46,724 nucleotides of DNA, from positions 1-46,724 of IMG/VR virus record IMGVR_UViG_3300009537_000027; one strand, 5' to 3'. A program made the position numbers and the translations under genes. Each line of letters begins with the position of its first letter. The stretch's first letter is position 1. The notes beneath the pieces are model-generated. The model did not search any database and had not been told where the DNA came from. It saw only the letters and a program-made list of their open reading frames with translations. Shown here piece after piece: positions 643-35,909 of this stretch. The stretch is from a virus.

Positions 643-929
643 GTGAAAGTCCCTCTAGCTAGTGTGTACACAGTTCCTGTGGTGGTGGCAGTTGCAGTTC
701 CTGTGCCTGTAGAGGTGACCCCTCTCACGATGAAGAAAGAAGAGCCTGTTCCTAAGACCCAGCCCCCTGCTCCGTGAGAGCCGGCTTGAGCAAGTGCCAG
801 CCCCGGCCTCATGTACACACAAGTAGGAGGTGTGGTCTCCACAAAGCAGTTTGCTAGCAAGCCTCCCCTCGAGAGTGTGCCATCTCGACTTTCCAAGGGG
901 GTTTCTTCCACGAGAGGAATCTTCGGCAT
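639..929 (-). CDS. Short protein resembling the N-terminus of a P22 gp10-like tail hub
   Basis: A 96-residue protein. ATG at 929 overlaps the stop of the gp4-like gene, and its own TGA overlaps the next ATG. It begins MPKIPLVEETP, followed by SRDGTLSRGG, LANCFVE and VYMRPGL. This is the arrangement seen at the start of P22 gp10-like proteins (PLV, SR, N.Y.E, PGL). A short beta segment (GGWVLGTGSSFFIVRG) follows, then a Thr/Gly stretch and a stop. Full family members are about 470 residues, so this is only the opening strands. The next gene repeats the same motif, and the remaining propeller is encoded at 44878-46284. It could be a working separate subunit or a remnant of a duplicated hub gene. 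Translational coupling suggests it is expressed. Confidence 0.75.
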   Translation of the reverse strand: MPKIPLVEETPLESRDGTLSRGGLLANCFVETTPPTCVYMRPGLALAQAGSHGAGGWVLGTGSSFFIVRGVTSTGTGTATATTTGTVYTLARGTFT

Positions 930-1933
930 CAGGGCCTCGTGAAGGGACTTCCCACATCAGTTGCCTCTCGCCCAGGTTCAAAGCTCAGGCTCGTCTCTTG
1001 CGGGTTGAGGTTCACGCCTTCGCGGACTGCGATCTCCCAGTGCTGGGCAAGGTCTGCGGTCCACGGCCTGCCAAACTTCGCAGCGCACCTCCGGGCAAGC
1101 TCCCACTCGAGAGCTGCGAAGTACTCTTGGGGGTACGCAATATCATCACTTCCCGCAGCGTTGTCATAATCCTCCGCTGGGTAGATGACTGTGAGGTGGA
1201 GTGTCTTATACACGTTCGCTGCGGCAAAGTTGAGGGTCACAGCCGTTGTGAGGCGCAAGGGCTCGATGAGGATGGCTGTGGGGTCCCCGGAGGCGAGCTT
1301 CTGGGTGACGAGCTCGTACTGCTGGACATCTGTGTACACTTCAAGGGGGATATCTATGGGCTGGCCCGGCGTGCTCCAGTCCCGCAAGCTCACCGCCTCG
1401 AGCTCCACGAAACGCTGTGCCTTGGAGGTGTAGGTGAACACAACGGCTCCGCTGTTAGCAGCCCCAATGCTGTTGGCCGCGATTGTCACTTGAGTGGAGG
1501 AATCCACCGTACTGATTGTACCCCAACCCAAAGCTCCCGTCGCAAGGACAAAACCAATCGTGTCCGCGGCTGTCATGCCTGTGGTACTGGCAAGGGTTAT
1601 CGTAGTGGCGCTTGCTCCCTTTGCAGCTGTGAGAGTTGTAACGACGGGGCTTACTGCGGCTCGAGCGTCTGCGCTTGCAGGGCCGACAAGGTAGCGAGCT
1701 TGCCCGGAGACGAAGAACATCTCGACCCTCTGGCGGGTCCACACCTTGAGGCCAGGGAACTTGTCGCTCTGGCCTTGCCACTGCTTCACAAGGAGGTTGA
1801 GAGTACGGAGCATGGTGGCAAGATCATTGCTGTCCAGGCTCTGGTTGTTCTCCGCAACTCCAATGTCCTCCGCTGCAGAGGTGATGATCTGAAGGGCAGT
1901 GACGCTGTAGTCCCAGCTTCCACTAGTTGCCAT
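929..1933 (-). CDS. Head-to-tail adaptor, P22 gp4-like
   Basis: A 334-residue protein likely to sit under the portal as head completion/tail adaptor. The first 90 residues match the gp4-like pattern: a helical start with SAAEDIGV, LNLLVKQWQGQ, an aromatic-rich stretch around VWTRQR, then the Y-x-V/I-G strand (ARYLVGP). Residues about 95-170 look like an inserted beta domain (TTITLASTTGM, TIGFVLATG, TYTSKAQRF), a kind of module often inserted in phage adaptor and tail proteins. The C-terminal half returns to helix (YFAALEWELARRCAAKFG), as in other family members. ATG at 1933 overlaps the preceding gene by 11 bases. Its position between capsid genes and the tail hub supports the role; the family call rests on pattern and context only. 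Confidence 0.72.
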   Translation of the reverse strand: MATSGSWDYSVTALQIITSAAEDIGVAENNQSLDSNDLATMLRTLNLLVKQWQGQSDKFPGLKVWTRQRVEMFFVSGQARYLVGPASADARAAVSPVVTTLTAAKGASATTITLASTTGMTAADTIGFVLATGALGWGTISTVDSSTQVTIAANSIGAANSGAVVFTYTSKAQRFVELEAVSLRDWSTPGQPIDIPLEVYTDVQQYELVTQKLASGDPTAILIEPLRLTTAVTLNFAAANVYKTLHLTVIYPAEDYDNAAGSDDIAYPQEYFAALEWELARRCAAKFGRPWTADLAQHWEIAVREGVNLNPQETSLSFEPGREATDVGSPFTRP

Positions 1934-4175
1934 CTTGACTCCTGGGGTAATCTCTTCGAGATCCGCTGAAGTCTACAGCCTTCTCTCGTTCAGCGGTGGT
2001 GTAGTATTCTTTCTCTCCAAACAGTTCTATCATCTTTCTACGAATAGGACTGTCTTTGGCGTTGGGGAGTCTATGTAGGCCTGTATTCCCCAAATCCCCC
2101 ACCTCTCCCCACTTCCCACTGCGCACAAAGTCCTGCACGTAAGGGAGGTACTCTGCGTTGGGAGCACGGTTTTGCTTGCCTTTGATTTGGAGGATGTCGT
2201 TGTATTCAGTCCAGGGCAGCTCAGCCCCAGCTTCGTCCACAGCCGCACCAACCTCCACCGTCACATGACTCTTCCCCTTTGCATCCCTCAGGGAGTAGAT
2301 CTTCGACTCTCCAGATGCCACCCCCTCACAGTACCCTCCCACACAGTGGCCCATCTGGTTGCCTTCTTGAGCGAGCTGGCCGGCGAGGTGGGCTTCTTCG
2401 GGGGTGCTTCCAGTAACCCACTCGTTTGTGTAAAAACTCTTAATAGGTTTACCCGCAGCATCTCTCGCTATTAAGATACTCATACGAGCGTGGTCGCGGT
2501 CATAATCCATAGTTCTAACCAGAATATCTAACTCAGCTTCTGTAGGAGGACTTACAGCTTTTGCTTGCTCCTCCGTCAGCCTCTCCGGCTTCTTCAGCTC
2601 CACCCACTTCATGCCCCGCAACGTGCCCGGATTCTGCGCACTGTAGTCCTTGTACACCGGCAAGTCCTTCATGCTTGCCGCAGCAGCTCTCTCCATCTCC
2701 TTCGCCACGCGGGCATCGTTCACGGCGGTCTCCTTCACTGCGCGCACGAGATCATACTGCTGGAGCTTCTCAGGAGGCACATTCTGCCGGAGGTAGTCTC
2801 CGACGTGGGAGAGGTAGGAAGTGATAGCTTGAAGCCTTGGAGTATCACTGTAGTCCCCATGATCCTTACCCCGGTCTGAGATTTTGTAGACAGGCTCCTT
2901 CACGGGCATTGAGTCTTTTATAGCCACAGTCTCTATATCAGACTTAATTATGGAGTCTGTCAATTCCTCCCACCTCTTCACTCCCTCTCCAAACGGCACC
3001 TCCACATCCTTCAGCGGGTCTGTGGCTGTGCCAGCATGCTTGTTGAGGTAGTTGGAGATGGCGCGAGTAGCCCACGCGCCCTCCATCTCGCCGCCAGTTG
3101 CATTAAACGGAATAGGTATAGCTCCCCTCGGATAGTGCACAGGAGGAGCAAGCCTGTCTACTAGGGGCCTACCTAACCTCTCCACCGCCTCCGGGTGCCA
3201 CATCCCCCCTTTCTCCTTCACCGCCTCTGCCACAGCCCCCGGAGCCTGCTTGATAATCTGCATCTCTCGGGGGAACTGGGCATCCTCCGTAAGGCTCGGA
3301 GCGAAGTTCCTAAGCTCCGGGTCCATCAGCCGAGCCTCCGCGTTCCGCGCCCGGACCTCTGCAGCATTCTTCCAGTAGTCTGGATCATCCAGCTGCGTCC
3401 CGTAGGAGAAGCCTTCTGCCTTGTCCATTGCGTGCTGGACCTCGTGCTCCATGACTGTGCGGCGGCCTTCAAAGCCCGCAGCTTCTGGTCCCCGTACAGC
3501 CCCTTGAGCATAGATCCTGTTCGTGCCTGGATGGAATGAGCCTTCCCGGGGGCCTTCCTTACGCAGGGACCTCAGCACAAGATCCGGGTAAGCTTGCCGG
3601 AACTGCTCCATAAGTTCCTCTTCTGTCTTCACAAGAGGGAACTCAAAGATCGGATGCCCTTCCTTGTTCAACTCCACTCCGTGTGTGCGCCAGACTTCTT
3701 GGGGAGGCTTCCCTTCTGCTAGGGCTTTCTTCCCGAGCAAGAACCTCATGAGGGTCTTTCCTCCAAGGTTCTCTGCCGCCTTCGCACCCCCCATCACGCC
3801 GAGGGCATACGGCGTGGCGTCCAGAGCAACTCCCAAGTCTCCCAGCCTCCAGTCCGGCTTGCCTCCCTGCTCTGCCTCCACAAGCTCTTCCAGCGCATCT
3901 TTCCTCCCCTCCACACCGAGCTTACCAAATAGGTTCCAGAGTTTCTTGGCATAGGTCTTAGCTTCGTCTGCAGGCTCTTCCGCGGCAGTCCTCGCTACGT
4001 TGAGGCGAGCTTGGTTCTGGGTGGGCGCAGCGAAGCGGCGGGCGTTCAGGAGAGGGTCATTCACGCTCTGCTGACCTCCCACTTGCTCTGGCATCCGAGC
4101 CCACTCAGGGCGGGCTTGCTGAATCAGCCCCTCAGTGTTCCGAGACTTGAGGATAGCCTCAAGCAGGGGGTCCAC
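1923..4175 (-). CDS. Large virion-associated protein with HExxH metallopeptidase-like motif and PcfJ-like C-terminus
   Basis: A 750-residue protein starting GTG at 4175, overlapping the previous stop (TAGTG). Residues 238-250 contain RRTVMEHEVQHAMD, an HExxH zinc-metallopeptidase signature (H244, E245, H248). Residues about 609-690 (GHCVGGYCEGVASGES, IYSLRD, VTVEV, QIKGKQN) resemble the C-terminal domain of PcfJ-like proteins. The middle is mostly charged helix without a recognised domain. This mixture resembles polyvalent proteins carried by phages and plasmids, which are thought to enter the recipient cell with the DNA. It lies in the late operon between the glycosyltransferase fusion and the adaptor, so it is made with the virion and could be packaged. 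Protease activity is inferred from the motif; a third zinc ligand is not obvious. Confidence 0.7.
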   Translation of the reverse strand: MDPLLEAILKSRNTEGLIQQARPEWARMPEQVGGQQSVNDPLLNARRFAAPTQNQARLNVARTAAEEPADEAKTYAKKLWNLFGKLGVEGRKDALEELVEAEQGGKPDWRLGDLGVALDATPYALGVMGGAKAAENLGGKTLMRFLLGKKALAEGKPPQEVWRTHGVELNKEGHPIFEFPLVKTEEELMEQFRQAYPDLVLRSLRKEGPREGSFHPGTNRIYAQGAVRGPEAAGFEGRRTVMEHEVQHAMDKAEGFSYGTQLDDPDYWKNAAEVRARNAEARLMDPELRNFAPSLTEDAQFPREMQIIKQAPGAVAEAVKEKGGMWHPEAVERLGRPLVDRLAPPVHYPRGAIPIPFNATGGEMEGAWATRAISNYLNKHAGTATDPLKDVEVPFGEGVKRWEELTDSIIKSDIETVAIKDSMPVKEPVYKISDRGKDHGDYSDTPRLQAITSYLSHVGDYLRQNVPPEKLQQYDLVRAVKETAVNDARVAKEMERAAAASMKDLPVYKDYSAQNPGTLRGMKWVELKKPERLTEEQAKAVSPPTEAELDILVRTMDYDRDHARMSILIARDAAGKPIKSFYTNEWVTGSTPEEAHLAGQLAQEGNQMGHCVGGYCEGVASGESKIYSLRDAKGKSHVTVEVGAAVDEAGAELPWTEYNDILQIKGKQNRAPNAEYLPYVQDFVRSGKWGEVGDLGNTGLHRLPNAKDSPIRRKMIELFGEKEYYTTAEREKAVDFSGSRRDYPRSQDGN

Positions 4176-4555
4176 TACATCCCCCTCGGAGGAATGAACC
4201 CATGCCGTCGCATCATCTGCATCATGAGCTGGCGCTGGAACTGGTCGAGGGCTTGAGGGTCTGTGTCATCCTGCGTGCCTATCCGAGGGTTGAGGCGTTG
4301 CTGGAGCCTCTGCTGGAACATCGCGGCCCCCTGGCGCATCCTCTCTGCTTGCACCTGCTCAAGCCTCTGCCTCTCCCCCATGAGGACAGACTGCTGGTGC
4401 TCGCCTTGCTGGTCTGGATGCCGAATGGCCTTGTCGATCTGGCTGAGATTCCTCGGATCAAGGTCCTCTTGCTCGTTCTGGCCCTCTGCGAGGTCTAGCC
4501 TCGGGGGCACTATCTCCCGCATCCGGTCGATCATCTTTCTGTACGGACTAGGCAC
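4175..4555 (-). CDS. Gln/Met/Arg-rich late protein, unknown function
   Basis: About 126 residues. GTG at 4555 is preferred because GGAGG lies six bases upstream; an in-frame TTG at 4561 sits too close to that site. It overlaps the end of the methyltransferase/glycosyltransferase gene by eight bases, and its stop overlaps the next start. The N-terminal part is basic (YRKMIDRMREIVPPR), followed by an acidic-polar linker. A long Gln-rich helix (MGERQRLEQVQAERMRQG, MFQQRLQQRL) ends in MMQMMRRHGF. It is probably mostly helical and able to form a coiled coil. No family was recognised. Location suggests a minor virion or assembly protein. Confidence 0.7.
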   Translation of the reverse strand: MPSPYRKMIDRMREIVPPRLDLAEGQNEQEDLDPRNLSQIDKAIRHPDQQGEHQQSVLMGERQRLEQVQAERMRQGAAMFQQRLQQRLNPRIGTQDDTDPQALDQFQRQLMMQMMRRHGFIPPRGM

Positions 4556-6149
4556 GAGCAACCTCCAATTTCTTGATCGGGATTGGTGCGGGAATCACGT
4601 TCGGGACTTTCAAGGCCCTCCCAATCGCAGTCCAACAAGCCTCTGGTGTGAGGTCCACCTGGCACTGGGCTGTGCCCTCCCAGTACTGCCCCTTGTCCTC
4701 ATTCCTATTGCAATGCTCCCAGGTGTAGTGGAGCTTGTGGCAGGGGTAGCAGGGAGTCTTCGTGCTGAAGAGCGCGATGGTGTTGTTCCAGTCCCGAGTG
4801 AGGTTCTCATGACTACTGTGGCTGAGGAATACGATCTTGGGCATAGGCTCCATGCACATGCCGCTCAGGACACCAGTCTCTGGCCCCACGATGAGGTCAC
4901 AGAGTTGAGCCATCGCGAGGGTCTGTCGGATGGACCACTTGCCGGCAGTCCGGATGATCCGGGGTTCATTCTGCCAAGGCTCATCCAGCATCAAGCTCTT
5001 CGCATCCCCCACAGTGATGATCTTGCACTCAGGATACACGAGAAGCATCCGGGCGTAGATCTGGTCGATGTGAGGCCAGACCTTGTGGACGCTGCTGCCA
5101 TTCAGGGCCCAGAGGAGCAAGGGGGCTGCCTTGAACTCAATCCGCCTCTCCAGTGCCCAGGCCTTCTCCTCCTCCGTGGGGAAGAAACGAGTCTCAGGCC
5201 TCTTGTACGGCACCTCCGCAAGTTCGTGCTGGAACTCCACGTAGTTGTAGTTCAGGTGCTTGTCTCGCACAGCCTTGGGCCACCGACTCGGCATCCGGTC
5301 GTTGAGGCTCAGCCAGGTGCCTTCCACACTTTCACTCAGGTTAATCCACCGATCATACTTCTTGCTCTCACTCCCCCAGAACGAGCCGAGAGCAACGTTG
5401 GGGACCTGGTCTGTGTCTTGAAGAATCACCCTGTCGATGTGGGGGTCGTGCTGGATCACCTCGAAGGCTCGAGGCGTGCTGTAGAGAGTGATGTGGAAGC
5501 CCTGCTTCTTGAGGGCCGGGAACACGCTGCAGGCCTGCAAGCTATCCCCCCAGGCACCATACCGCACAATGCCACAAGTCTTCGCGGGCCGGGGCTCCAT
5601 GTAGCTCATCTTGTGTCCCGCACCTGCCTCGAGCTTGCGGAACACCTGGAAGAAGCTATACTCCATAGCCTCGCTGCGCTTCTCACTCCGGAGGCAATCC
5701 CAGTCCGGGAACTCATCCATCACGTCGAGGATGTCGGCCTCCACAAAGTCATGCTTGTGGTCGGTGTTCGCTCCTGGCTGGCCGATGTTGGGGTAGAGCT
5801 CCTTGTGGGGGAGGTACAAACAGAGGTGGCCTCCCACCTTCACAAGCCTCCACCACTCCTTGAGTGCCCCCTTGTAGTCCTCCACGTGCTCCAGCATGTG
5901 ACTACTAAAGATGAAGTCACAGCTCTCACTCGCGAACATGGGGAGGCTGCAAGCATCCGGCACAGTGAGATCTGGATTCATAGGAGTGCCGAAGAGCTGG
6001 CAATCCTTCTTGTTATCCACCCCGATGAAGTGCGGGAAGGCCTTGTGAGGCCCGCAGCCTAAGTCAAGGCCGAAGCCTCTCGTGTAAGGCACAAGCTCCC
6101 AAAGCATCTTCCCGGCTTCATTCCCCTGAGGATCTTCCGCACGCCACAT
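4548..6149 (-). CDS. Fusion: SAM methyltransferase + GT9 heptosyltransferase-like glycosyltransferase
   Basis: A 533-residue protein with two parts. Residues about 25-125 form a class I SAM methyltransferase: motif I GLDLGCGP at 27-34, acidic FIGVDN at 41-46, LPMFASESCDFIFSSHMLEHVED at 69-91 and WWRLVKVGGHLCLYLP at 99-114. Residues about 190-490 look like a GT9 (ADP-heptose:LPS heptosyltransferase family) domain, with GIVRYGAWGDSLQ at 193-205, a second Rossmann-like half (IITVGDAKSL) and the donor-site-like segment DLIVGPETGVLSGM. Known GT9 enzymes move heptose from ADP-heptose to LPS core. This phage also carries heptose-nucleotide genes at 32.9-37.4 kb on the other strand, which supports that substrate. 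It sits in the late operon, so it would act during virion assembly, on LPS or on a virion protein. Methylation of the transferred sugar is inference. Confidence 0.8.
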   Translation of the reverse strand: MWRAEDPQGNEAGKMLWELVPYTRGFGLDLGCGPHKAFPHFIGVDNKKDCQLFGTPMNPDLTVPDACSLPMFASESCDFIFSSHMLEHVEDYKGALKEWWRLVKVGGHLCLYLPHKELYPNIGQPGANTDHKHDFVEADILDVMDEFPDWDCLRSEKRSEAMEYSFFQVFRKLEAGAGHKMSYMEPRPAKTCGIVRYGAWGDSLQACSVFPALKKQGFHITLYSTPRAFEVIQHDPHIDRVILQDTDQVPNVALGSFWGSESKKYDRWINLSESVEGTWLSLNDRMPSRWPKAVRDKHLNYNYVEFQHELAEVPYKRPETRFFPTEEEKAWALERRIEFKAAPLLLWALNGSSVHKVWPHIDQIYARMLLVYPECKIITVGDAKSLMLDEPWQNEPRIIRTAGKWSIRQTLAMAQLCDLIVGPETGVLSGMCMEPMPKIVFLSHSSHENLTRDWNNTIALFSTKTPCYPCHKLHYTWEHCNRNEDKGQYWEGTAQCQVDLTPEACWTAIGRALKVPNVIPAPIPIKKLEVARA

Positions 6150-6152
6150 GGC

Positions 6153-6371
6153 TCAGCCGACCTTCGTGTAACCCTTGGCCAGGCCACTCTCTCCCTCAGT
6201 CCGGGGAGCCGAGAACGTGGACTTCTTGCCGTTCCCTTTGGCCTCAGACACGATGACTCTGTTCTTCGTGCTTGCGGGTAGGTTTGGCTTGGTCATGACC
6301 TTGGGGTGGCCTCGACCATGCACTTCTGCGACAAGGGGGGCGCTTCCAGACTTCTTCGATGGTTTCAGCAT
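6153..6371 (-). CDS. Small basic late protein, unknown
   Basis: A 72-residue, Lys/Ser/Pro-rich protein with few hydrophobic residues (MLKPSKKSGS, KVMTKPNLPASTKNR, AKGNGKKSTF). It probably has little fixed structure. ATG at 6371 lies just after the preceding stop, and its TGA is followed at once by the next ATG. No family was recognised. Its place in the tightly packed head operon and matching codon use argue that it is real. Confidence 0.6.
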   Translation of the reverse strand: MLKPSKKSGSAPLVAEVHGRGHPKVMTKPNLPASTKNRVIVSEAKGNGKKSTFSAPRTEGESGLAKGYTKVG

Positions 6372-6373
6372 GA

Positions 6374-6565
6374 CTAGAACCTATCTCCATAGTTGTTCCG
6401 ACGAAGGAAACCGCCTGGCTGCTCGAGGCCAGAGCCTCCGGCGGGATTCTCGAACTCCTGCAAGGCCTCATTCTTCGAGAGGCCCCCTTGCTGCATCCGA
6501 CGCTTGTGAGCCGCGTTCGTCGGCTCGGGCTTCCCGGCGTCAGTGAATCCTTTCTCTTCTTTCAT
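6374..6565 (-). CDS. Small polar late protein, unknown
   Basis: About 63 residues. ATG at 6565 is chosen over an upstream in-frame start at 6613 because a strong AAAGGAG lies immediately upstream. The product (MKEEKGFTDAGKPEPTNAAHKRRMQQGGLSKNEALQEF) is charged with a short helix near KNEALQEF and a Gly-rich end. No family was recognised. It lies downstream of the capsid gene, where small head accessory proteins are common. Confidence 0.6.
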   Translation of the reverse strand: MKEEKGFTDAGKPEPTNAAHKRRMQQGGLSKNEALQEFENPAGGSGLEQPGGFLRRNNYGDRF

Positions 6566-6616
6566 CTGCTCTCCTTTAGCAGGTGGAAGGGGCCGAAGCC
6601 CCCTCCATCCCACAGG

Positions 6617-7003
6617 TTACACCGTGACGTTCGCGCCTGGTACGATCTGATACTCAACGGAGAACGCACCGACTTCAGTTGCATCAGTGCCTTTCCCCAC
6701 ATACATCACATCTCCCTTCGCCAGAGTGGCTGTGGAGAGGATGTTCAGAGCGTAGTACGCTGCAGTCGTGGTTGCAAGTGCTGTCGTGGTCGTGGCGGTC
6801 CCGCTGATGAGGAAGAGGGACTTCACGTCCGAGGCAGCGCCCGTGCCGACGGTGACTGTCGAGTAGTTGACGGATCGCAACTGCAGGTTCGCGTGCGCAG
6901 CGAACCGCTGGCTGAGGGCACCCGAACCTGCAAGAATTGATCCCCCAAACGCAAAGACAGCCGTGTACGCCGGATGGTCGTAGGCGAAGTTTCTGGTAGC
7001 CAT
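6617..7003 (-). CDS. Possible capsid decoration or head-fibre protein
   Basis: A 128-residue protein directly downstream of the major capsid gene, 12 bases after its stop. It is rich in Thr, Ala and beta-branched residues (YSTVTVGTGAASDVKSLFLISGTATTTTALATTTAAYYALNIL) and has almost no Lys, Cys or Trp. This fits a small all-beta capsid-surface protein. Genes in this place are often decoration (cement) proteins, which is the basis of the call. No specific family was recognised, and a minor tail-associated protein is also possible. Confidence 0.6.
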   Translation of the reverse strand: MATRNFAYDHPAYTAVFAFGGSILAGSGALSQRFAAHANLQLRSVNYSTVTVGTGAASDVKSLFLISGTATTTTALATTTAAYYALNILSTATLAKGDVMYVGKGTDATEVGAFSVEYQIVPGANVTV

Positions 7004-7988: not shown

Positions 7989-9089
7989 TTATGTTCCTTT
8001 TCTCGGAGGTGAAAGTTGAGCCTTGCCGCGAAGTGCGGCCATGCTCGCTATGATCTCACTGGGAGTCTTCGCCTTCTCTGAGGCAGCGCCCTCTTGGAGC
8101 CGCGCGGCGGCTGTCCTGGGGACGGGAGGAGTTTCTGCTTTCCTCGCAGCTCGGGCCGCCACCGTTCCTTGCGGAGTGGGTGCGCCGGGGGCTGATGCCT
8201 TGGGCAAGTTGAAGGCCTTTCTGAGATCATCGCCGATTGCTTGGTACAGTTCCTTGTAAGGCCGGCGATCATTCTCGCCCCCTCTCTCTTTTGGCGCTCG
8301 GCGGCGGTTCTCTTCAACGAAGAACAGCCGCTTCAGGTAGTCGTTAGAGAAAAGGTCCTTGTACTCGGTCTGTACGAAGCTCAGGGCGCTTTGAAACTGG
8401 AGTTCGTCCTGCGCAGCCATCCGGGCCTGCTGTGCTGCAAACTGCTGAATCTGATCTGGTCTGACGACGTCGCGAGTGCGGAGCTCTGCCATCGCGGCGG
8501 TCGCTTGCTCTGGAGAGCCGAACTGGAGATCATGCGCAAGCTCTGCGTCTGTTCTGCCTTCTGGCTTCTCGGAAGGTTCTTGCTTCTGAGGCGTCCCTTG
8601 CGGGGTGGACTCTCGAGCTTTTGCCTCGGCCTCTCGGAGCAACTCTGAGGCCATTTTGAGTCTGAAGTCTGCCGCAGTTTCCTTCTGAAAAGTGCGGTAT
8701 CCTGCGTCGATGATGGCGCTGCCCTTGACTTCGAGCTCTTGCCCATCGACTTTGACTTTGTACATCTTCTCCGGGTCTACAGCCTCGGGGGCCGCCGGAG
8801 CTAGGGTGGTGGGCTCCCCGGAGGGGGCACCCGGCACCACAGCTTCCTCTGAGGCAAGGGGAGGAGGAGGCTCTTCGGCCTCAGCAGCGGCTGCCTCCGG
8901 CGGCTGGGTGATCTCTCCGTCCTCACTGATCGTGGGGAGGGTCTCTGCGAACTCAACCTTGTGCTGCTCAGCCACAGTCTTGGCGATCTCGGCCAGGCTG
9001 ATATTCCGAGGACTTACCTCCGGGTTCGGCTTGGAGTACTCTTCCTCAGGACTCGGGTCTTGGGGTTTCGGGTCTGGATCAATCTTCAT
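7989..9089 (-). CDS. Scaffolding protein
   Basis: A 366-residue acidic, Pro/Glu/Ala-rich protein located between portal and capsid genes, where tailed phages encode scaffold. The N-terminal 110 residues are disordered and acidic (DPDPKPQDPSPEEE, AAAEAEEPPPPL). The centre is helical (ADFRLKMASELLREAEAKARES, IQQFAAQQARMAAQDELQFQ). The C-terminus is basic (RKAETPPVPR, ALRGKAQLSPPRKGT), as in scaffolds that bind coat through a basic tail. The stop falls two bases before the capsid start. Function is inferred from composition and position rather than from a specific family. Confidence 0.75.
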   Translation of the reverse strand: MKIDPDPKPQDPSPEEEYSKPNPEVSPRNISLAEIAKTVAEQHKVEFAETLPTISEDGEITQPPEAAAAEAEEPPPPLASEEAVVPGAPSGEPTTLAPAAPEAVDPEKMYKVKVDGQELEVKGSAIIDAGYRTFQKETAADFRLKMASELLREAEAKARESTPQGTPQKQEPSEKPEGRTDAELAHDLQFGSPEQATAAMAELRTRDVVRPDQIQQFAAQQARMAAQDELQFQSALSFVQTEYKDLFSNDYLKRLFFVEENRRRAPKERGGENDRRPYKELYQAIGDDLRKAFNLPKASAPGAPTPQGTVAARAARKAETPPVPRTAAARLQEGAASEKAKTPSEIIASMAALRGKAQLSPPRKGT

Positions 9090-9405
9090 GTGCTACCTCT
9101 TGGAGTGCGCCGTCCGCCGACTTGCCGGATAGGATCAGGTCTCGAAGCCAGCTCAGGAAGAACTGGGCTCGCCAGATGCGATTTTGCAGGTTCTGAATCT
9201 TGCGTCTCCGCCAGGGCAAGACTCGCGCAAGCTCCTCTTGCGCCAGGATGATTTCTTGGTTAAGACACCCCACGAGGTGCCGCCCAAGATCTCCGTGGAG
9301 GAAGTCTCGGGCCTGCAGGCCGAGGTCCACTTCCGCCACATAAGTGCGAGTCGTGGGATCGAGGCTGTCGAGGAGGTTCTGCAGGTCGAGGTCTGGAGTG
9401 TCCAT
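9079..9405 (-). CDS. Small helical protein between portal and scaffold
   Basis: A 108-residue, mostly alpha-helical protein. ATG at 9405 overlaps the portal stop (TGATG), and its end overlaps the scaffold start by 11 bases. The first half is acidic (MDTPDLDLQNLLDSLD). The second half is basic and amphipathic (EELARVLPWRRRKIQNLQNRIWRAQFFLSWLRDLI). No family was recognised. Position suggests a head-assembly accessory factor. Confidence 0.65.
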   Translation of the reverse strand: MDTPDLDLQNLLDSLDPTTRTYVAEVDLGLQARDFLHGDLGRHLVGCLNQEIILAQEELARVLPWRRRKIQNLQNRIWRAQFFLSWLRDLILSGKSADGALQEVAHED

Positions 9406-11675
9406 CAGCGGGCTCTCGCATCTCCGTTACCACCCGCAGGCTTGGGGGCGTGCTTAGCAGCTTCAGTCATTGCCTTCGCCTTTGCTACAGCAAGGAAGCG
9501 GTCTGTGGCAGCCTTGACTCGAGCCTTGAACCACTCAAGGTCGGCTTGCTGCCGGGCCTTGGCGGCCTCGAGGGCGGCTTGCTGGGCGGCTTTCCTCTGA
9601 TCAAGCTGGAGATTCTGCTGGTTCTCCCGAGTTTTGGCTGCGAACTCAAAGGCTTGCTCTTTCTGCCTGAGGCTGAACTCCATCATAAGCTCTTGCATCT
9701 TCCCATCGAACTCATGCTGGGCCTCAAGTTGCTGCATCTCGAGGGTGTGCTCCTTCTCATCCAGGGCTCTCTCCCGCCTCTGGATGCGATCTTTGTGGCT
9801 GTCCACGATTTGCTGGGCAGTTGCCTCTGCTTGCTGCATGAGCTGCTGGGCCTGGACGAGCCGAGGATCCACTTGGGTGAAGAAGCGGGCGCTATCCTTG
9901 AAACCAGCCAAGCCGTAGAGTTCCTTACGCACTTCTGGCAAGTTCATGTCGGAGGGAGCCTGCTGAGAGATCTGTCCATACGCCCCAGTTGCCTGCATGA
10001 ACTTCTGGAACCTCTGCTCTGGATCTGTAGCTCCCATGCCTACGTTCACAGCGAGAGTCAGCTCCTGATCAAGGAGCTTGTCAAGGTCTGGATTCTGCTG
10101 GTAGTGCTCCCAGGCTCCCGCCTTCTTCGCCGCAATCGCGAGCACGACCTCATCACTCTCGTACTTCTGCTCGAGCTTGATGAGTTGCCTAAGGGTGGGC
10201 TCCACCCAAGTCTCAACCCAGACTCGGAAGGTGTATTCTGTGAGCATGTTGCTGCCGGCCCCCATCATCTTCATGCCGCCCACAGTCTCATTCATCCGCC
10301 TGTTCGTCATGACGGAGCTGCTGTTCAAGCCACCGCCTTCCAAGTCGTCGAAATCCGCGTTCAAACGGTCCTGTTCCTGGAAACTGCTGGCGGTGACATC
10401 TGTCCAGTTTACCTCTCTCACATCCTTCTCTGTGTCATTCGCCATTGTGACTCCCCCAGGGACGTTCCTCAAGATCCCTTCCACATCCACATTGGAGCCC
10501 CGGCGCACAATCCAGCGCTTGTTCAGGACGAACTTCACGTTATCCAGCCTCTGGTTCGCAACCTCATTCGCCTCTTGCTGGAGCTGCGAGCCCAGCCCCG
10601 CGAGGCCCTTCGGCATGGCTTGGTGGGTCTCGATCAGGCAGAAGCCAATGGTGACTGGGATCTCCCCTATGGGGAACATCTCCCTCAAGGGCACAGACTC
10701 TGTGAGCAGTTCCAGGTCCTTGAGACTGTAGAAAGTGTAGCACTTCCCCCCACTCTTGATGAAGTTGAGGTGAACCTGAATCACGTCGAATTCATTCACA
10801 GTGCTCGTGACTGTATCTGGGTTCTCCTTGCGGCCATCTCGGGCCTGCTGCACAGGGTCATCTTCTGACATGCGGGCTTGGAGGAGCCTCTCCTTACTCA
10901 CCCGCTTCCAGGGCTTGCCTTGCTTCCCGTAGCCTTTCTCCATCCGGTCGAGCACATCCTGCACGTACATCGGCATTTCGAGGATGAGATAAGGGCTCGT
11001 ACCGACGACATCGAACCACTTGGCTGCGGGATCAAAGTGGACCCGCTGGATGCTCAGCAGCTCGCAGCACGGCTTGTCCACAACAGGGACATCTTCTTCC
11101 AGTTCCAGAGAGATGGGCCCAAGCCCCGGGACCTCCACAGTCTTCTGCACCTTCTGCGGCTCTGTGATGTAGTCCCAGTACTGGAAGGAAGCACAAATCC
11201 CCACGCTCATTGCGTCTTGGAAGGCCCCCAAACTCGTGATGAACCAAGGCACGCCATTCTTCACACTTGAGAGGCGGTACTGGAGGAGTTCCTTGTTTAT
11301 CCGAGCGGAGATGGCTTGCTGCTGGTTCTCCTCATTGATCGGGTCCACGCTCACGACATCAGGGTTGCTGAAGAGAGCCTGAGCTGCAGTGGCCTCGTGC
11401 TTGCGAATCACACTCCGAGTCTTCGGGCGGAAGATTCGGCTGCGGTACTTATACGCATCACTGTTGTACTTGCTGTCTCGAGGATGCTGGGAGTTGAAGA
11501 GACGGAGGCCATCCTCCCAGATCTTCCGGTAGTTGTTCTCTGCGTAGGTGGTACTACGCTTGAAGGCGTCCTTGGCGAGCTTCATCCAGGGATCTGGGCT
11601 CGAGGTAGAACCACTGGCTCCGCCTCCCATCTCGTCTCCCTGGGCTTGCCCAGGAATAAGATTCGTGCTAGCCAT
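9405..11675 (-). CDS. Portal protein
   Basis: About 756 residues from ATG at 11675; an upstream in-frame start at 11723 would run far into the previous gene. The N-terminus carries portal features: PWMKLAKDAFKRS, a conserved RKIWEDGLRLFNSQHPRDSKYNS segment and FRPKTRSVIRKHEATAAQALFSNPD. The middle has a typical stem/wing pattern (ECFPIGEIP-like strand REMFPIGEIPVTIGFC, then GLGSQLQQEANEVANQRLDNVK). The last 120 residues are a long Gln/Ala/Lys coiled coil (EEKEHTLEMQQLEAQH-like, ENQQNLQLDQRKAAQQAALEAAKARQQADL), comparable to the barrel extension of podovirus portals. It lies between terminase and scaffold. Dodecameric assembly at one capsid vertex is family knowledge. Confidence 0.85.
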   Translation of the reverse strand: MASTNLIPGQAQGDEMGGGASGSTSSPDPWMKLAKDAFKRSTTYAENNYRKIWEDGLRLFNSQHPRDSKYNSDAYKYRSRIFRPKTRSVIRKHEATAAQALFSNPDVVSVDPINEENQQQAISARINKELLQYRLSSVKNGVPWFITSLGAFQDAMSVGICASFQYWDYITEPQKVQKTVEVPGLGPISLELEEDVPVVDKPCCELLSIQRVHFDPAAKWFDVVGTSPYLILEMPMYVQDVLDRMEKGYGKQGKPWKRVSKERLLQARMSEDDPVQQARDGRKENPDTVTSTVNEFDVIQVHLNFIKSGGKCYTFYSLKDLELLTESVPLREMFPIGEIPVTIGFCLIETHQAMPKGLAGLGSQLQQEANEVANQRLDNVKFVLNKRWIVRRGSNVDVEGILRNVPGGVTMANDTEKDVREVNWTDVTASSFQEQDRLNADFDDLEGGGLNSSSVMTNRRMNETVGGMKMMGAGSNMLTEYTFRVWVETWVEPTLRQLIKLEQKYESDEVVLAIAAKKAGAWEHYQQNPDLDKLLDQELTLAVNVGMGATDPEQRFQKFMQATGAYGQISQQAPSDMNLPEVRKELYGLAGFKDSARFFTQVDPRLVQAQQLMQQAEATAQQIVDSHKDRIQRRERALDEKEHTLEMQQLEAQHEFDGKMQELMMEFSLRQKEQAFEFAAKTRENQQNLQLDQRKAAQQAALEAAKARQQADLEWFKARVKAATDRFLAVAKAKAMTEAAKHAPKPAGGNGDARAR

Positions 11676-12036
11676 GCGGGAGGTGCCTCGGGGCCTTCCA
11701 GTACTTCTCAAGCTTGCGATCATCTAGCTCGAAGGTGAGGACTGGGTCTTCTCCTCTGGGCCCGCGAGCGAGGTTGGCCCGTTCAAGCAGCTCTCCTGCA
11801 GCTCGAATATACTCTCTCTTACGAGCTCCCGCATCATGGGCAAGGGCCTCCACTTTGCGCAGCATCCCAATGAGGCCGCGTGCGCCGCTGGCCTCGAGGT
11901 GCTTGATGACGAGGACTCCCCCTTTACACTCGATCCACCAGCTGTGGTTGGGGTAAGCGAAGGTGAGGACTTCGGCGGCTTCCTTGGCGAAGTTATCAGC
12001 AAGGGGGTTATCTCCTATTGCGTGGATGAGGGCCAT
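11668..12036 (-). CDS. Small late protein, unknown
   Basis: About 122 residues from ATG at 12036, which lies two bases after the preceding stop. Upstream in-frame starts at 12075 and 12117 would overlap that gene by 38 or 80 bases, more than is usual here, but cannot be excluded. The protein has an alpha/beta start (MALIHAIGDNPLADNFAKEAAEVLTFAYPNHSWWIECKGGVLVIKHLEASGARGL) and a charged helical end. No family was recognised. The stop overlaps the portal start by eight bases. Confidence 0.65.
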   Translation of the reverse strand: MALIHAIGDNPLADNFAKEAAEVLTFAYPNHSWWIECKGGVLVIKHLEASGARGLIGMLRKVEALAHDAGARKREYIRAAGELLERANLARGPRGEDPVLTFELDDRKLEKYWKAPRHLPHG

Positions 12037-28833: not shown

Positions 28834-29051
28834 GGCGAGATAAGCTGGAGGATATAGAAGCCTTGCTCGAGCGTCTGTGGGGGCACCTTGCTGTTAGCAA
28901 GGAAACTCGCCACAAGTTTTACACAGAGGGTTATAGGGAGGGGAAGAAAGCGGGCTACAGAGAAGGCCGGCAAGATGGCTTTGAGGAAGGTTTCAAAGAG
29001 GGGAAGATTTTTCCTTCGATCCATCAACCCAAAGATCCTCTCGCTGGATGA
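28830..29051 (+). CDS. Small protein with EG repeat
   Basis: A 73-residue protein, start overlapping the methyltransferase stop (ATGA). RRDKLEDIEALLERLWGHLAVSKETRHKF leads into a repeat with Gly every four residues (YTEGYREGKKAGYREGRQDG, then FEEGFKEGK). Such charged EG-x-x-x-G helices occur in small phage proteins and resemble extended amphipathic helices. It overlaps the polymerase start by four bases. Confidence 0.65.
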   Translation: MRRDKLEDIEALLERLWGHLAVSKETRHKFYTEGYREGKKAGYREGRQDGFEEGFKEGKIFPSIHQPKDPLAG

Positions 29052-32631: not shown

Positions 32632-32943
32632 ATGTCAACCTCCCCTAAGCTTCTGCTGCATACCGGCGTTCTTCGCCGCAAACAGGCGCGTAAGAACGGG
32701 GCTACTCGCGGCCCGTCTGGGGCTCGACACACGTACAGTAAGGATGTGGAGGGCTCGCTGGATGGCTCAGACCCTTGGCTGTGGCCTCGGGCCAGCATGC
32801 CTCCTCGCCGGCTGCCCACCCGCTCTACACAGGCGGCTCCGGGAGAGGCTCCGGCTGCCCGCTGGACGCGGTACGGTCGTTGGAGTGAAGATGGGAGCCA
32901 AGTCTTGAACAACCTCGGAAGGGTGATATATGAGCACCCCTAA
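32632..32943 (+). CDS. Basic protein at the start of the sugar cassette (uncertain)
   Basis: A 103-residue frame from ATG at 32632, overlapping the start of the kinase gene by 14 bases. Its codon use looks more like neighbouring genes than the other frames do. MSTSPKLLLHTGVLRRKQARKNGATRG, then a Pro/Arg/Trp-rich low-order stretch, then WSEDGSQVLNNLGRVIYEHP. No family was recognised and no clear ribosome site is seen. If it is not translated, 32600-32929 is an untranslated leader. Confidence 0.5.
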   Translation: MSTSPKLLLHTGVLRRKQARKNGATRGPSGARHTYSKDVEGSLDGSDPWLWPRASMPPRRLPTRSTQAAPGEAPAARWTRYGRWSEDGSQVLNNLGRVIYEHP

Positions 32944-33754
32944 GCCCATCCTTGTGTGTGGAGACGCGATGGTGGATGAGTACTGGTATGGGGAGGTCTC
33001 CCGTATCAGCCCAGAGGCTCCTGTACCAGTCGTCAAAGTCATCCGGCAAGAGGACCGCTTCGGGGCCGCCGACAACGTGGCTGCGAACATCCAGGCCCTT
33101 GGCGGCACCTTCATCTCAGCTACTTGCAACACTGCTCGCAAGATCCGCCTCATAGGCCGGAACCAGCAAGTCGCCCGTGTAGACTTTGACTGGACTCCCA
33201 AAGAAGAGGACCTCCAGGCCATGGAGCAAGCCTTCCTAGCCGCTCTCCCCAAGTGCTCCATCGTGGTGTTCAGTGACTATGGGAAAGGAAGCCTTGCTCG
33301 TGTAGATGAGCTTATCTTGAGGGCAAAAAACTCCCTCATACTCGTGGACCCCAAGGGGCATGACTACGCTCGGTATGCCGGCGCTGATCTCATCAAGCCG
33401 AATACAGACGAGCTTCGCCAAGTTGTGGGTGGTTGGTCTGACGAGCACCAGCTTAAACGCAAGGTCCAGGCCCTGCTCACAACAGTTCGCATTAAGCACC
33501 TTCTTCTTACTCAAGCCTCAGAAGGTATGACCTTCTTTACTAAAGAGGGAAGCTCTCATTTCCCTTCTGAAGCCCGCGAGGTCTATGACGTGACAGGGGC
33601 TGGAGACACCGCCATCGCAGCACTGGCTGTATCTCTTAGTGAGGAGTACGGCTGGTTACGTGCAGTTCACTACGCTAACAAGGCTGCCGGCATCGTCTGT
33701 GGGAAGTTCGGTACAGCGGTAGCCACAAAGGAGGAAGTCTATGAAGCTGGCTGA
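32930..33754 (+). CDS. hldA: Heptose-7-phosphate kinase, HldA/RfaE N-terminal type
   Basis: A 274-residue PfkB/ribokinase-family protein. SRISPEAPVPVVKV (24-37) is the signature of heptose-7-phosphate 1-kinases. FGAADNVAANIQALGG (44-59) is the substrate strand. TGAGDT (residues 222-227, catalytic D226) is the anion hole and base. Known enzymes convert D-glycero-D-manno-heptose 7-phosphate to the 1,7-bisphosphate. It is shorter than the HldE kinase domain (about 318), but the key motifs are intact. GGAAGG precedes ATG. It overlaps the isomerase gene by 14 bases. With 33741 and 37045 it gives most of the ADP-heptose route; a GmhB phosphatase and HldD epimerase were not found in the window. Confidence 0.88.
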   Translation: MSTPKPILVCGDAMVDEYWYGEVSRISPEAPVPVVKVIRQEDRFGAADNVAANIQALGGTFISATCNTARKIRLIGRNQQVARVDFDWTPKEEDLQAMEQAFLAALPKCSIVVFSDYGKGSLARVDELILRAKNSLILVDPKGHDYARYAGADLIKPNTDELRQVVGGWSDEHQLKRKVQALLTTVRIKHLLLTQASEGMTFFTKEGSSHFPSEAREVYDVTGAGDTAIAALAVSLSEEYGWLRAVHYANKAAGIVCGKFGTAVATKEEVYEAG

Positions 33755-34160
33755 AGCAATCCACAAGGCCAAGCGAATCTACATCATCGGGAATGGAGGA
33801 AGCTTCGCCAACGCCCAACACATCTGTAATGACCTCCTCCTCTGCGGAGTGAGAGCCCACACCCTTGACCCCGCGACCCTCACGGCGATAGCAAATGACT
33901 TTGGCTACGAGTGGGTCTTCGCTCGCTGGCTCAACGTGATGGCAGAGAAAGGAGACCTCCTCATTGCGCTGAGTGGAAGTGGAAAGTCTCCCAACATCCT
34001 CAAGGCTCTCGGCGTGGCTCACCAGAAAGGCATGGAAGTCTGGCCCCTTTTCGGCGCAGCCCAAGGGCAAGACATGCAGACTGCAGAGGAGTTTCAGATC
34101 AAGACTGGCCATGACATCATGCGCTGGTATAAGGGAGAGGCTCGTGACAAACGCGGATAG
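33741..34160 (+). CDS. gmhA: SIS-domain sedoheptulose-7-phosphate isomerase, GmhA-like, short form
   Basis: A 139-residue SIS protein. IIGNGGSFANAQH (15-27) and LIALSGSGKSPNILKAL (74-90) are the sugar-phosphate loops, and ANDFGYEWVFARW (51-63) matches the GmhA pattern NDFGF-x-x-x-F. Family enzymes turn sedoheptulose 7-phosphate into D-glycero-D-manno-heptose 7-phosphate. It is some 50 residues shorter than usual. The position matching catalytic Glu65 of E. coli GmhA appears to be Asp31. The protein ends before the C-terminal helix that carries the catalytic His in E. coli. It may therefore work differently, or with the host enzyme. It overlaps both neighbours and has GAGGAAG upstream. Confidence 0.8.
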   Translation: MKLAEAIHKAKRIYIIGNGGSFANAQHICNDLLLCGVRAHTLDPATLTAIANDFGYEWVFARWLNVMAEKGDLLIALSGSGKSPNILKALGVAHQKGMEVWPLFGAAQGQDMQTAEEFQIKTGHDIMRWYKGEARDKRG

Positions 34161-34644
34161 GGTGGCAGAGTGGCTCGCAAGCAAAGACATCACCCACGCC
34201 TTCGGCATTATTGGAGGGGGGAATGTGGCTTTCTGGAACGCAGTGGTGGCGCGAGGCAAGACCCAGATCGTGTGCTGCCACCATGAGCAGGCGGCCGCCC
34301 AGGCCTCCACGTTCTACTTCCGCACGTGTGGGAAGATTGCCCCCTGTATCGTGACGACTGGTGCAGGAAGCACGAACGCCATTACAGGAGTCATGAGCGC
34401 CTGGATGGACAGTATGCCTCTCCTCGTGATAAGTGGAAACGAAGCATACCAGTACCACGGGGATGGAGGCCGGGGATTCGGCTTCCAGGGGTACTCCAGC
34501 CACCACATCGCGAGGCGCTTCACGAAGCGAGCAGCTTTCCTCACCCCGAGCCGCCTGGACGAAGACCTCGCGGCCGCCCTTGAACCTCGCCAAGGTCCTG
34601 TCTGGCTTGACTTCCCCAAGGATAACCAAAATGCTCTGGCGTAA
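34144..34644 (+). CDS. Thiamine-diphosphate enzyme, N-terminal (PYR) subunit
   Basis: A 166-residue protein from GTG at 34144 with GGGAGAGG upstream, overlapping the isomerase end by 17 bases. NADRVAEWLASKDITHAFGIIGGGN and CCHHEQAAAQAS (catalytic Glu48, which activates the cofactor) are the pyrimidine-binding domain of acetolactate-synthase-type enzymes. IVTTGAGSTNAITGVMSAWMDSMPLLVISG is its second conserved block. The domain ends with GPVWLDFPKDNQ, where a full enzyme would continue; the next gene supplies the rest and starts 14 bases before this stop. It must pair with the following gene product to be active. Confidence 0.85.
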   Translation: MTNADRVAEWLASKDITHAFGIIGGGNVAFWNAVVARGKTQIVCCHHEQAAAQASTFYFRTCGKIAPCIVTTGAGSTNAITGVMSAWMDSMPLLVISGNEAYQYHGDGGRGFGFQGYSSHHIARRFTKRAAFLTPSRLDEDLAAALEPRQGPVWLDFPKDNQNALA

Positions 34645-35710
34645 GCGCCCTCTCCTCATGCTCGGCCACGGTATCCGGGCAGCCGGATGCCAAGACCTCG
34701 CCCCCATGCTCCTCAACCTTGGAGTCCCTGTGGTCGCGAGCTGGCAAGCCAAAGACCTCGTGGACAACAGGCATCCGGCCTTTCTTGGTTGCACTGGCAT
34801 CTATGGGAACCGCGGGGCAAACAAGGCCCTCGCCAATGCTGACCAGCTTGTTGTTCTTGGCAACCGGCTGAGTCTCTGGAACATCTCCGAGCATGGCCTC
34901 GCGGCTAAGCCTGAAGTCCTCATGGTGGACGTGGACCCTATAGAGGCAACTCGCCTCGGGGCTGAGTACCTGAGTACTCCTCTCTCTTTCTTCATCAGGA
35001 ATCTGGAGTCCGCAAGGTGCCCTGAGTGGATGAAGCAGTGCCTGGATTGGAACACAGACTGGCTCGAGCACAGGGACACAGAAGCCTACATCAACTCCTA
35101 CAAGTTCACCAATGCGCTCACTCCCTTCCTCGAGCCAGACCATGTTATTGTGACTGACATGGGGGCTCCCCTCATGAGTGCCCACCAAGTCCTTCGCCTC
35201 AAGCCTCCCCAGCGCCTTATGACGAGCGGGGGCCTGGGAGAGATGGGAGTTGCACTCCCCGCAGCCATCGGAGCTTGCTTCGCGGGAGCCAAGCATGTTC
35301 TCTGCCTTCACGCAGATGGGGGTATGATGATGAACCTGCAGGAACTCCAGACCATCCTCCATCACAACCTTCCCATCAAGATCATCATATATGAGAATGA
35401 AGGCTACCTCATGATGAAGCACACCCAGAAAGCTCAAAGCCTCATACCTCATGGAGTGAGTCCACGCACGGGTGTGAGCCTCCCAGACTATGAGCGCCTT
35501 CTCAGAGGCTGGGGCTTCCGTGTGGGAAGCTTGCGTACATCCACAGACTTTTCCACCCTCATCCCCCAGTTGTTTGGAGCAGAGGGCCCGGCTGCCGTTA
35601 TTTACCACATGGACCCTGAGCAGCCTCTCGTTCCCAAGATGACTTACCGCTACGAGGGGCCGACTCTTGTTTATGACACCCTTTCTGATATGAGCCCCCA
35701 CAAGGAGTGA
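34631..35710 (+). CDS. Thiamine-diphosphate enzyme, central and C-terminal (PP) subunit
   Basis: A 359-residue protein from ATG at 34631, overlapping the PYR gene in another frame. Residues about 8-150 look like the central domain (RPLLMLGHGIRAAG, VVASWQAKDLVDN, ALANADQLVVLGNRLSLW). Residues about 170-350 are the pyrophosphate domain: GGLGEMGVALPAAIGACF, then HADGGMMMNLQELQTIL and LPIKIIIYENEGYLMMKHTQ. The last resembles the Mg-diphosphate motif GDG...NN, with ADG and ENE at the key places. The family uses thiamine diphosphate to join or cleave 2-keto acids. In a sugar cassette, a carboligase building a branched sugar (as YerE does) is one idea; a decarboxylase is another. Confidence 0.85.
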   Translation: MLWRKRPLLMLGHGIRAAGCQDLAPMLLNLGVPVVASWQAKDLVDNRHPAFLGCTGIYGNRGANKALANADQLVVLGNRLSLWNISEHGLAAKPEVLMVDVDPIEATRLGAEYLSTPLSFFIRNLESARCPEWMKQCLDWNTDWLEHRDTEAYINSYKFTNALTPFLEPDHVIVTDMGAPLMSAHQVLRLKPPQRLMTSGGLGEMGVALPAAIGACFAGAKHVLCLHADGGMMMNLQELQTILHHNLPIKIIIYENEGYLMMKHTQKAQSLIPHGVSPRTGVSLPDYERLLRGWGFRVGSLRTSTDFSTLIPQLFGAEGPAAVIYHMDPEQPLVPKMTYRYEGPTLVYDTLSDMSPHKE

Positions 35711-35711
35711 T

Positions 35712-35909
35712 ATGAGCACCCCCCATCTTGAAGTCGTCGTGAAGTTCCCGAAAGAGGTTCCCACAGATGCCCAGGGACCTGCCCTCATGCTCCTCGAGCT
35801 TACCCTTCGCACCCTCACAAGGCTTGATGTAAGAGTCGTGAAGGACCTCATGGGAGATGATTCCAAGCTCCGTAAACTTATGACCATCCAGCAAAGAGAG
35901 GCACTATGA
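35712..35909 (+). CDS. Small protein in the sugar cassette
   Basis: A 65-residue protein, one base after the thiamine-enzyme stop. HLEVVVKFPKEVPTDAQGPALMLLELTLRTLTRLDVRVVKDLMGDDSKLR has an alpha/beta pattern and no cysteines. It overlaps the radical SAM start (ATGA). No family was recognised; a partner or chaperone of a neighbouring enzyme is possible. Confidence 0.65.
   Translation: MSTPHLEVVVKFPKEVPTDAQGPALMLLELTLRTLTRLDVRVVKDLMGDDSKLRKLMTIQQREAL

What the first reader, a model, noticed from the sequence alone, without database searches (positions are those of the whole stretch)
4548..6149. Methyltransferase fused to a GT9 heptosyltransferase-like domain inside the virion operon
Seen: class I methyltransferase motifs (GLDLGCGP) lead into GT9-like motifs (RYGAWGDSLQ, VGPETGVLSG) in one 533-aa chain, located among capsid and tail genes on the opposite strand from the sugar cassette. 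Family knowledge: GT9 enzymes use ADP-heptose. Inference: the late-timed enzyme may attach the cassette's heptose to a virion protein or seal host LPS against superinfection, perhaps with a methyl cap.
Basis: partly seen in the sequence, partly recalled or inferred. Interest (0 to 1): 0.78.

Follow-up and report, generated by a model that had tools for sequence, protein, structure and literature searches.

The report
Capsid-operon sugar-transferase and methyltransferase fusion
A large group of never-cultured bacterial viruses keeps, right beside the gene for its shell protein, one enzyme that joins a methyl-adding half to a sugar-attaching half; it probably decorates the virus particle with methyl-capped sugar, but what it modifies has not been shown.

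Summary
The 533-aa ORF is exact. AlphaFold2 (94-sequence alignment, pLDDT 93.8) gives a class I methyltransferase (residues 4-175) followed by a GT-B fold matching GT9 enzymes (WaaF Z 23.4, WaaC Z 21.0, TibC Z 20.1). Catalytic motifs and four Cys are essentially invariant in 94 relatives. At least 566 viral loci carry relatives; no GenBank phage record holds the fused protein. Loci picked only by capsid similarity carry both halves in 33 of 33 cases with 6 kb downstream (30 fused, 3 split), whereas cultured cousins (PTXU04, Bas95, Vibrio phages) lack it. It sits between the capsid gene and a head-tail connector gene, often overlapping the connector's start. An unrelated siphovirus lineage (HK97-type capsid, lambda FII-like connector) has it at the same junction. 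That junction also gathers other sugar O-methyltransferases and glycosyltransferases. Best reading: a virion-glycosylating, methyl-capping enzyme, like the O-methyltransferase and glycosyltransferases in Corndog's capsid operon. Donor, acceptor and methyl site are not shown. The LPS alternative is less likely but open.

The parts
4548..6149 (-). Fused methyltransferase-GT9 protein (MT-GT), 533 aa
5625..6140 (-). Class I SAM methyltransferase domain, residues 4-175 (Methyltransf_11); D29, G31, G33, D45 invariant
   Evidence: Pfam E 3.4e-11; fold match to 3dli Z 16.1; conservation in 94 sequences
4602..5588 (-). GT-B (GT9-like) glycosyltransferase domain, residues 188-516
   Evidence: 3tov Z 24.8, WaaF 1psw Z 23.4, WaaC 2h1h Z 21.0, TibC 4rap Z 20.1; R196, G201, D202, K356, E424 invariant
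4662..4751 (-). Four-cysteine motif C467-x2-C470-x9-C480-x15-C496 in the GT domain, likely a bound metal
   Evidence: C470, C480, C496 in 94 of 94 and C467 in 93 of 94 sequences; TibC has C339-x2-C342-x15-C358-x11-C370 (PMC4358343)
7016..7987 (-). Major capsid protein, upstream neighbour in the operon
   Evidence: phrog_1357 E 1.7e-16, PF25209 E 1.7e-7
6617..7003 (-). Small Ser/Thr-rich protein following the capsid gene (decoration-like by position)
   Evidence: relatives in 60 of 93 loci; 22% Ser+Thr
6153..6613 (-). Two small ORFs of unknown function (6153-6371 and 6374-6613) between the small protein and MT-GT
929..1933 (-). Head-tail adaptor-like gene that directly follows MT-GT in most relatives
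   Evidence: phrog_637 (adaptor Ad3) E 4.7e-4 (weak); relatives in 60 of 93 loci, most starting within a few bases of the MT-GT stop
1923..4175 (-). PcfJ-like gene; with the ORF at 4175-4561 an insertion between MT-GT and the adaptor in the window and a few relatives
   Evidence: PF14284 E 1.3e-7; only 3-5 of 93 loci have these genes
7989..9089 (-). Scaffold-like gene by position
   Evidence: relatives in 65 of 93 loci
9405..11723 (-). Portal protein
   Evidence: PF23899 (SU10 portal) E 9.6e-25
32930..37440 (+). Heptose cassette considered as donor source: HldE-type kinase 32930-33754, GmhA-type isomerase 33741-34160, HldE-type adenylyltransferase 37045-37440, with acetolactate-synthase-like and radical SAM genes between
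   Evidence: NCBIfam matches; most MT-GT phages lack it

Best explanation
MT-GT is a late-expressed, cytosolic two-step glycan enzyme of the virion assembly operon. The GT9-fold half transfers a sugar from a nucleotide donor to a protein of the nascent head; the capsid protein, the small Ser/Thr-rich protein and the connector are the candidates. The fused methyltransferase half methylates that sugar, either as a cap or before transfer. Shown here: the two folds, invariant catalytic motifs, universal retention in the lineage, position between capsid and connector genes in two unrelated capsid lineages, and other sugar genes at that junction. Inferred: catalysis, late timing, the donor (ADP-heptose is only one possibility), the acceptor, the order of the two reactions, and any protective or adsorption role.
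For: Fold and catalytic residues. Of loci chosen by capsid protein alone, 33 of 33 with >=6 kb downstream carry both halves, 30 fused and 3 as separate neighbouring genes, so the two activities stay together even when not in one chain. Gene order capsid - MT-GT - adaptor, all on one strand, with the adaptor start within -39 to +7 nt of the MT-GT stop in 45 of 60 loci. The same junction occurs in a siphovirus-type lineage: portal phrog_21, protease/HK97 capsid fusion (PF04586/PF05065), MT-GT, then PF05354 head-tail attachment protein, with ATGA or TAATG overlaps. Accessory ORFs at the junction include TylF sugar O-methyltransferases (8 of 75), GT2 (6 of 75) and GT1 (2 of 75); accessory ORFs elsewhere in the same set of loci gave one GT (GT41) in 75 (Fisher p 1.2e-4). 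The methyltransferase half's annotated GenBank phage relatives lie in sugar clusters. Precedent: Corndog-type phages carry an O-methyltransferase and glycosyltransferases between portal and protease (PMC4351075), reported to modify capsid and tail tube (Freeman 2023, as cited in PMC11600133).
Against: No acceptor or modified virion has been seen. The small Ser/Thr-rich protein is about equally Ser/Thr-rich in cultured relatives that lack MT-GT, so it does not point to an acceptor. Those relatives assemble heads without the enzyme. GT9 enzymes with known function mostly modify LPS (my knowledge). Methyltransferase-half divergence does not track capsid divergence (rho 0.03, against 0.56 for the GT half), so the halves do not share one simple history.
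Confidence: 0.6

Rival explanations
1. MT-GT modifies host LPS or another envelope glycan late in infection, blocking superinfection or readsorption of progeny, with the methyl group as a chain-terminating cap.
For: Closest folds include the LPS heptosyltransferases WaaF and WaaC. A heptose cassette is in the window and a few relatives. The two MAG contigs with the gene are labelled Zoogloea and Gallionellaceae, Gram-negative.
Against: Fixed position between capsid and connector genes in two unrelated capsid lineages, often overlapping the connector start; cassette absent from most carriers; two GT9 donor-contact positions changed.
Confidence: 0.2
2. The enzyme modifies something else: the phage genome's bases, a host protein, or a soluble metabolite.
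For: Phages use GT-B enzymes to glycosylate DNA bases (my knowledge); substrate specificity cannot be read from the fold.
Against: DNA modification genes usually sit with early DNA-metabolism genes (my knowledge); here the gene is inside the virion operon, with sugar O-methyltransferases of the TylF and FkbM type at the same junction.
Confidence: 0.12
3. One reading: the GT half attaches the heptose made by the phage's own plus-strand cassette.
For: The window encodes GmhA-, HldE-kinase- and HldE-adenylyltransferase-like proteins. Cyanophage relatives of the methyltransferase half lie next to heptose genes. Gram-negative hosts can also supply ADP-heptose (my knowledge).
Against: The GmhA-type gene is in 5 of 42 records checked; the cassette has its own GT2 at 37353-38336, a more direct candidate user; changed donor-pocket positions.
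Confidence: 0.2
4. The two halves are functionally unrelated and only co-transcribed, for example a protein methyltransferase that happens to be fused to a glycosyltransferase.
For: Methyltransferase-half and GT-half identities correlate only weakly (rho 0.27); natural split forms exist.
Against: Both halves are retained in all 33 informative loci, and the split genes stay neighbours; the methyltransferase half's phage relatives lie in sugar clusters.
Confidence: 0.12

Closest known systems
Corndog-type (cluster O mycobacteriophage) virion glycosylation genes
   Same: O-methyltransferase and glycosyltransferases inside the virion operon near portal and capsid; reported to modify capsid and tail tube (PMC4351075; Freeman 2023 cited in PMC11600133)
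   Different: Separate genes, between portal and protease, in phages of mycobacteria; here one fused chain with a GT9-type fold at the capsid/connector junction, and no modification shown
GT9 LPS heptosyltransferases WaaF (1psw) and WaaC (2h1h)
   Same: GT-B fold with Z 23.4 and 21.0; aligned catalytic Asp region and K-x-W-P motif
   Different: D-[ST]-G-x-x-H becomes E-[TS]-G-x-x-[NS]; fused methyltransferase; four-Cys motif; capsid operon setting
TibC / BAHT protein O-heptosyltransferases (4rap)
   Same: GT-B fold Z 20.1; a Ser/Thr-x3-Lys motif with the same spacing as TibC T226/K230; four Cys at a similar distance after the donor motif; known protein modifiers (PMC4358343)
   Different: Cys spacing differs; TibC's N-terminal beta-barrel is replaced by a methyltransferase; the TibC Trp305 position appears to be Asn/Ser (placed by motif spacing only)
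Cyanophage 'methyltransferase type 11' (Synechococcus phage S-T4, Sf-CH8)
   Same: About 33% identical to the methyltransferase half, in a heptose/sugar cluster
   Different: Stand-alone protein of about 165 aa, no GT half, not in a capsid operon in the region shown

Membership tests
Glycosyltransferase family 9 (PF01075) | GT-B fold of the GT9 type over the whole domain | tested here: met
   AF2 model pLDDT 93.8; 3tov Z 24.8, 1psw Z 23.4, 2h1h Z 21.0
Glycosyltransferase family 9 (PF01075) | Sequence score over the Pfam gathering cut-off (22 bits) | tested here: inconclusive
   Window protein 12.8 bits, below; relatives in G003 and G026 score 29.3 and 24.8, over it; 47 of 94 match at E<=0.01
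Glycosyltransferase family 9 (PF01075) | Catalytic Asp in the N-lobe G-D motif and donor-phosphate Lys in the K-x-W-P motif | tested here: met
   D202 and K356 in 94 of 94, aligned with 3tov and 1psw
GT9 heptosyltransferases (WaaC/WaaF type) | D-[ST]-G-x-x-H donor motif | tested here: not met
   E-[TS]-G-x-x-N in most members and E-T-G-V-L-S in the window
GT9 heptosyltransferases (WaaC/WaaF type) | Use of ADP-heptose on LPS core | not testable with these tools
   needs an enzyme assay
BAHT protein heptosyltransferases (TibC type) | Four Cys binding iron in an insertion of the C-lobe | tested here: inconclusive
   Four near-invariant Cys at a similar place but with spacing 2/9/15 instead of 2/15/11; metal binding not testable here
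BAHT protein heptosyltransferases (TibC type) | N-terminal beta-barrel | tested here: not met
   The N-terminal part is a methyltransferase fold
Class I SAM methyltransferases (Methyltransf_11) | Rossmann methyltransferase fold with motif I D-x-G-x-G | tested here: met
   94 of 94 match PF08241; D29, G31, G33 invariant; Z 16.1 to 3dli
Phage virion glycosylation systems (Corndog type) | Methyltransferase and glycosyltransferase genes within the virion operon | tested here: met
Phage virion glycosylation systems (Corndog type) | Glycan present on virion proteins | not testable with these tools
   needs mass spectrometry; no cultured member known

The most novel reading that the evidence does not exclude
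A single-chain, methyl-capping protein glycosyltransferase of GT9 fold is a fixed part of head assembly in a large, uncultured group of phages (the two MAG-binned members point to Gram-negative hosts), has been placed at the capsid/connector junction in at least two unrelated capsid lineages, and makes virion glycosylation a routine, genome-encoded trait there, with the same junction acting as a hot spot where sugar-modifying genes are swapped.
Probability: 0.45. Interest if true: 0.82.

Novelty: new variant of a known kind. Interest (0 to 1): 0.64.

Why it matters
Virion glycosylation is documented for a few mycobacteriophages and is linked to immune recognition (Freeman 2023, cited in PMC11600133). 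It gives a defined two-step enzyme, named candidate acceptors next door, and cultured cousins without it (PTXU04, Bas95) as natural controls. If true, glycan-coated capsids may be common in uncultured phages and have been missed because the relevant phages are not in culture.

Tried and rejected
A first structure job with only three sequences was useless (pLDDT 34); the 94-sequence job replaced it. The heptose-cassette link was tested by family searches on 42 viral records and found weak; many contigs are fragments, so the counts of absence are upper bounds. The Ser/Thr-rich neighbour as acceptor: composition does not separate lineages with and without MT-GT. No plasmid relatives of the GT half. 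Of 399 genomes of the order of the Zoogloea MAG, only that MAG had the full protein and three had methyltransferase-half matches. A sequence profile of the GT half finds GT9 structures only weakly; the fold carries the case. Domain swapping between halves was considered: the identity matrices disagree, but methyltransferase types segregate with GT neighbours, so I claim only unequal histories. An artefact from the antisense ORF (4263-6062 +) was rejected by conservation of the minus frame. Literature searches found no description of this fused family; the library lacks most subscription papers. The viral structure library showed no clear full-length two-domain match among its top 50, which does not prove absence.

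Full report
WHAT IS THERE. The window is a 46,724-base virus record. Pfam finds a methyltransferase (E 3.4e-11) and a sub-threshold GT9 match (E 0.073). The gene lies among terminase, portal and capsid genes on the same strand; the sugar genes are on the other strand near 33-38 kb.

A LARGE FAMILY. All full-length relatives examined have both halves. GenBank phages (50,697 records) hold only stand-alone matches to the methyltransferase half, the annotated ones in cyanophages, and plasmids hold none to the GT half. A minus-frame artefact is excluded, although an antisense ORF of 599 aa exists.

FOLD AND ACTIVE SITES. With 94 sequences AlphaFold2 gives pLDDT 93.8 and pTM 0.90. Residues 4-175 match class I methyltransferases (3dli, Z 16.1); residues 188-516 match GT9 structures 3tov (Z 24.8), WaaF (23.4), WaaC (21.0) and TibC (20.1). 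Invariant or nearly so in 94 sequences: D29, G31, G33, D45 (methyltransferase), R196, G201, D202, K356, E424 (GT), and C467, C470, C480, C496. Sequence alignment to 3tov and 1psw places D202 on the GT9 G-D motif and K356 on the K-x-W-P lysine. S352-x3-K356 has the same spacing as TibC Thr-226 and Lys-230, and the four Cys recall TibC's iron finger (C339, C342, C358, C370; PMC4358343), with different spacing. The donor motif differs from GT9 heptosyltransferases: E-[TS]-G-x-x-[NS] instead of D-[ST]-G-x-x-H. So the enzyme looks active, but its sugar cannot be read off.

GENE ORDER. In 93 non-redundant loci the capsid gene is found in 73, always on the same strand and upstream; with 6 kb of upstream sequence it is found in 50 of 55. 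An adaptor-like gene follows directly, its start within -39 to +7 nt of the MT-GT stop in 45 of 60 loci. In the window a PcfJ-like gene and a small ORF are inserted between the two. When loci are instead chosen by capsid similarity only, all 33 with 6 kb downstream contain both halves; in three (L180, L183, L197) they are separate neighbouring genes, a single well-supported clade that branches within the fused forms, although its nearest sister is weakly placed. Cultured relatives by capsid (45-49% identity: Vibrio phages, PTXU04, Bas95) have portal, scaffold, capsid, small genes and connector but no MT-GT.

A SECOND CAPSID LINEAGE. Nine loci with more divergent GT halves (L050, L053, L055, L057, L060, L061, L063, L068, L076) have a different architecture: phrog_21 portal and tape measure (tested in L057 and L076), a large protease/HK97-type capsid ORF directly upstream (capsid PF05065 in L055 and L076, S78 protease PF04586 in L055), MT-GT, and then a PF05354 head-tail attachment protein (tested in L050 and L068). 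The other loci of this group were assigned by similar ORF ends and order only. Stop/start overlaps (ATGA, TAATG) recur at the MT-GT/connector boundary. The same place in two unrelated capsid systems argues that the product acts on the head or is needed with it.

A SUGAR HOT SPOT. Accessory ORFs between capsid and connector match TylF sugar O-methyltransferases (8 of 75), GT2 (6 of 75) and GT1 (2 of 75), with single FkbM, MptE-like and nucleotide-sugar-type genes. A control set of 75 accessory ORFs from elsewhere in the same loci gave one glycosyltransferase (GT41) (16 vs 1, Fisher p 1.2e-4; loci are related, so the p-value is optimistic). The methyltransferase half's annotated phage relatives lie in sugar clusters, two of the three contexts examined next to heptose genes.

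THE CASSETTE LINK. The window does carry heptose genes. Of 42 viral records holding MT-GT that were searched, 5 have the GmhA-type isomerase (window, L006, L008, L054, L130) and one more has a PfkB kinase alone. Contigs may be incomplete, and hosts can supply ADP-heptose, so heptose is possible but not indicated.

MECHANISM. The most likely role is post-translational glycosylation of a head protein during assembly, followed or preceded by methylation of the sugar. Corndog-type mycobacteriophages are the functional precedent: an O-methyltransferase and glycosyltransferases in the virion operon (PMC4351075), reported to modify capsid and tail tube (Freeman 2023, cited in PMC11600133; that paper itself is not held). 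LPS modification remains a rival.

NOVELTY. The parts (GT9 fold, Methyltransf_11, virion-operon glycosylation) are known; the fused chain, its fixation in uncultured lineages and its repeated placement at the capsid/connector junction were not found in the literature available here. I call it a new variant of a known kind.

Noticed in passing
window 33973-35710 (+): The acetolactate-synthase-like TPP gene is split into two overlapping frames (33973-34644 and 34433-35710), each matching a different part of the enzyme, so it is frameshifted in this record (real or a sequencing error).
   Followed up: partly
window 29048-31387 (+): A uracil-DNA-glycosylase-superfamily domain (E 9e-29) is fused to a family A DNA polymerase (E 4e-39) in one 779-aa ORF.
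   Followed up: no
window 1 and 46724: Genes at the right end (43817-46284, minus) have relatives 1-3 kb downstream of MT-GT in other loci, so the two ends of the record probably join: a circular or permuted near-complete genome.
   Followed up: partly
L180, L183 and L197: Natural split forms: methyltransferase and GT halves are separate neighbouring genes, about 2 kb apart in L180.
   Followed up: yes
L034 8527-10014: At the same junction, a 495-aa protein with an MptE-like domain (E 5e-16) and a Methyltransf_23 match: another possible glycan-type domain fused to a methyltransferase.
   Followed up: no
L135 4263-9021: A run of glycosyltransferase, methyltransferase+GT1, Gfo/Idh/MocA oxidoreductase and hexapeptide acetyltransferase genes between capsid and MT-GT, resembling a nucleotide-sugar pathway.
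   Followed up: partly
A4 alignment, 67 loci with capsid gene: GT-half divergence tracks capsid divergence (rho 0.56) but methyltransferase-half divergence does not (rho 0.03), hinting at exchange or different selection on the methyltransferase half.
   Followed up: partly
window 1923-4175 (-): A 750-aa PcfJ-like gene is inserted between MT-GT and the adaptor gene; PcfJ-like proteins are otherwise known from conjugative plasmids (my knowledge).
   Followed up: no
window 4263-6062 (+): A 599-aa open frame antisense to MT-GT; no sign that it is a gene.
   Followed up: partly
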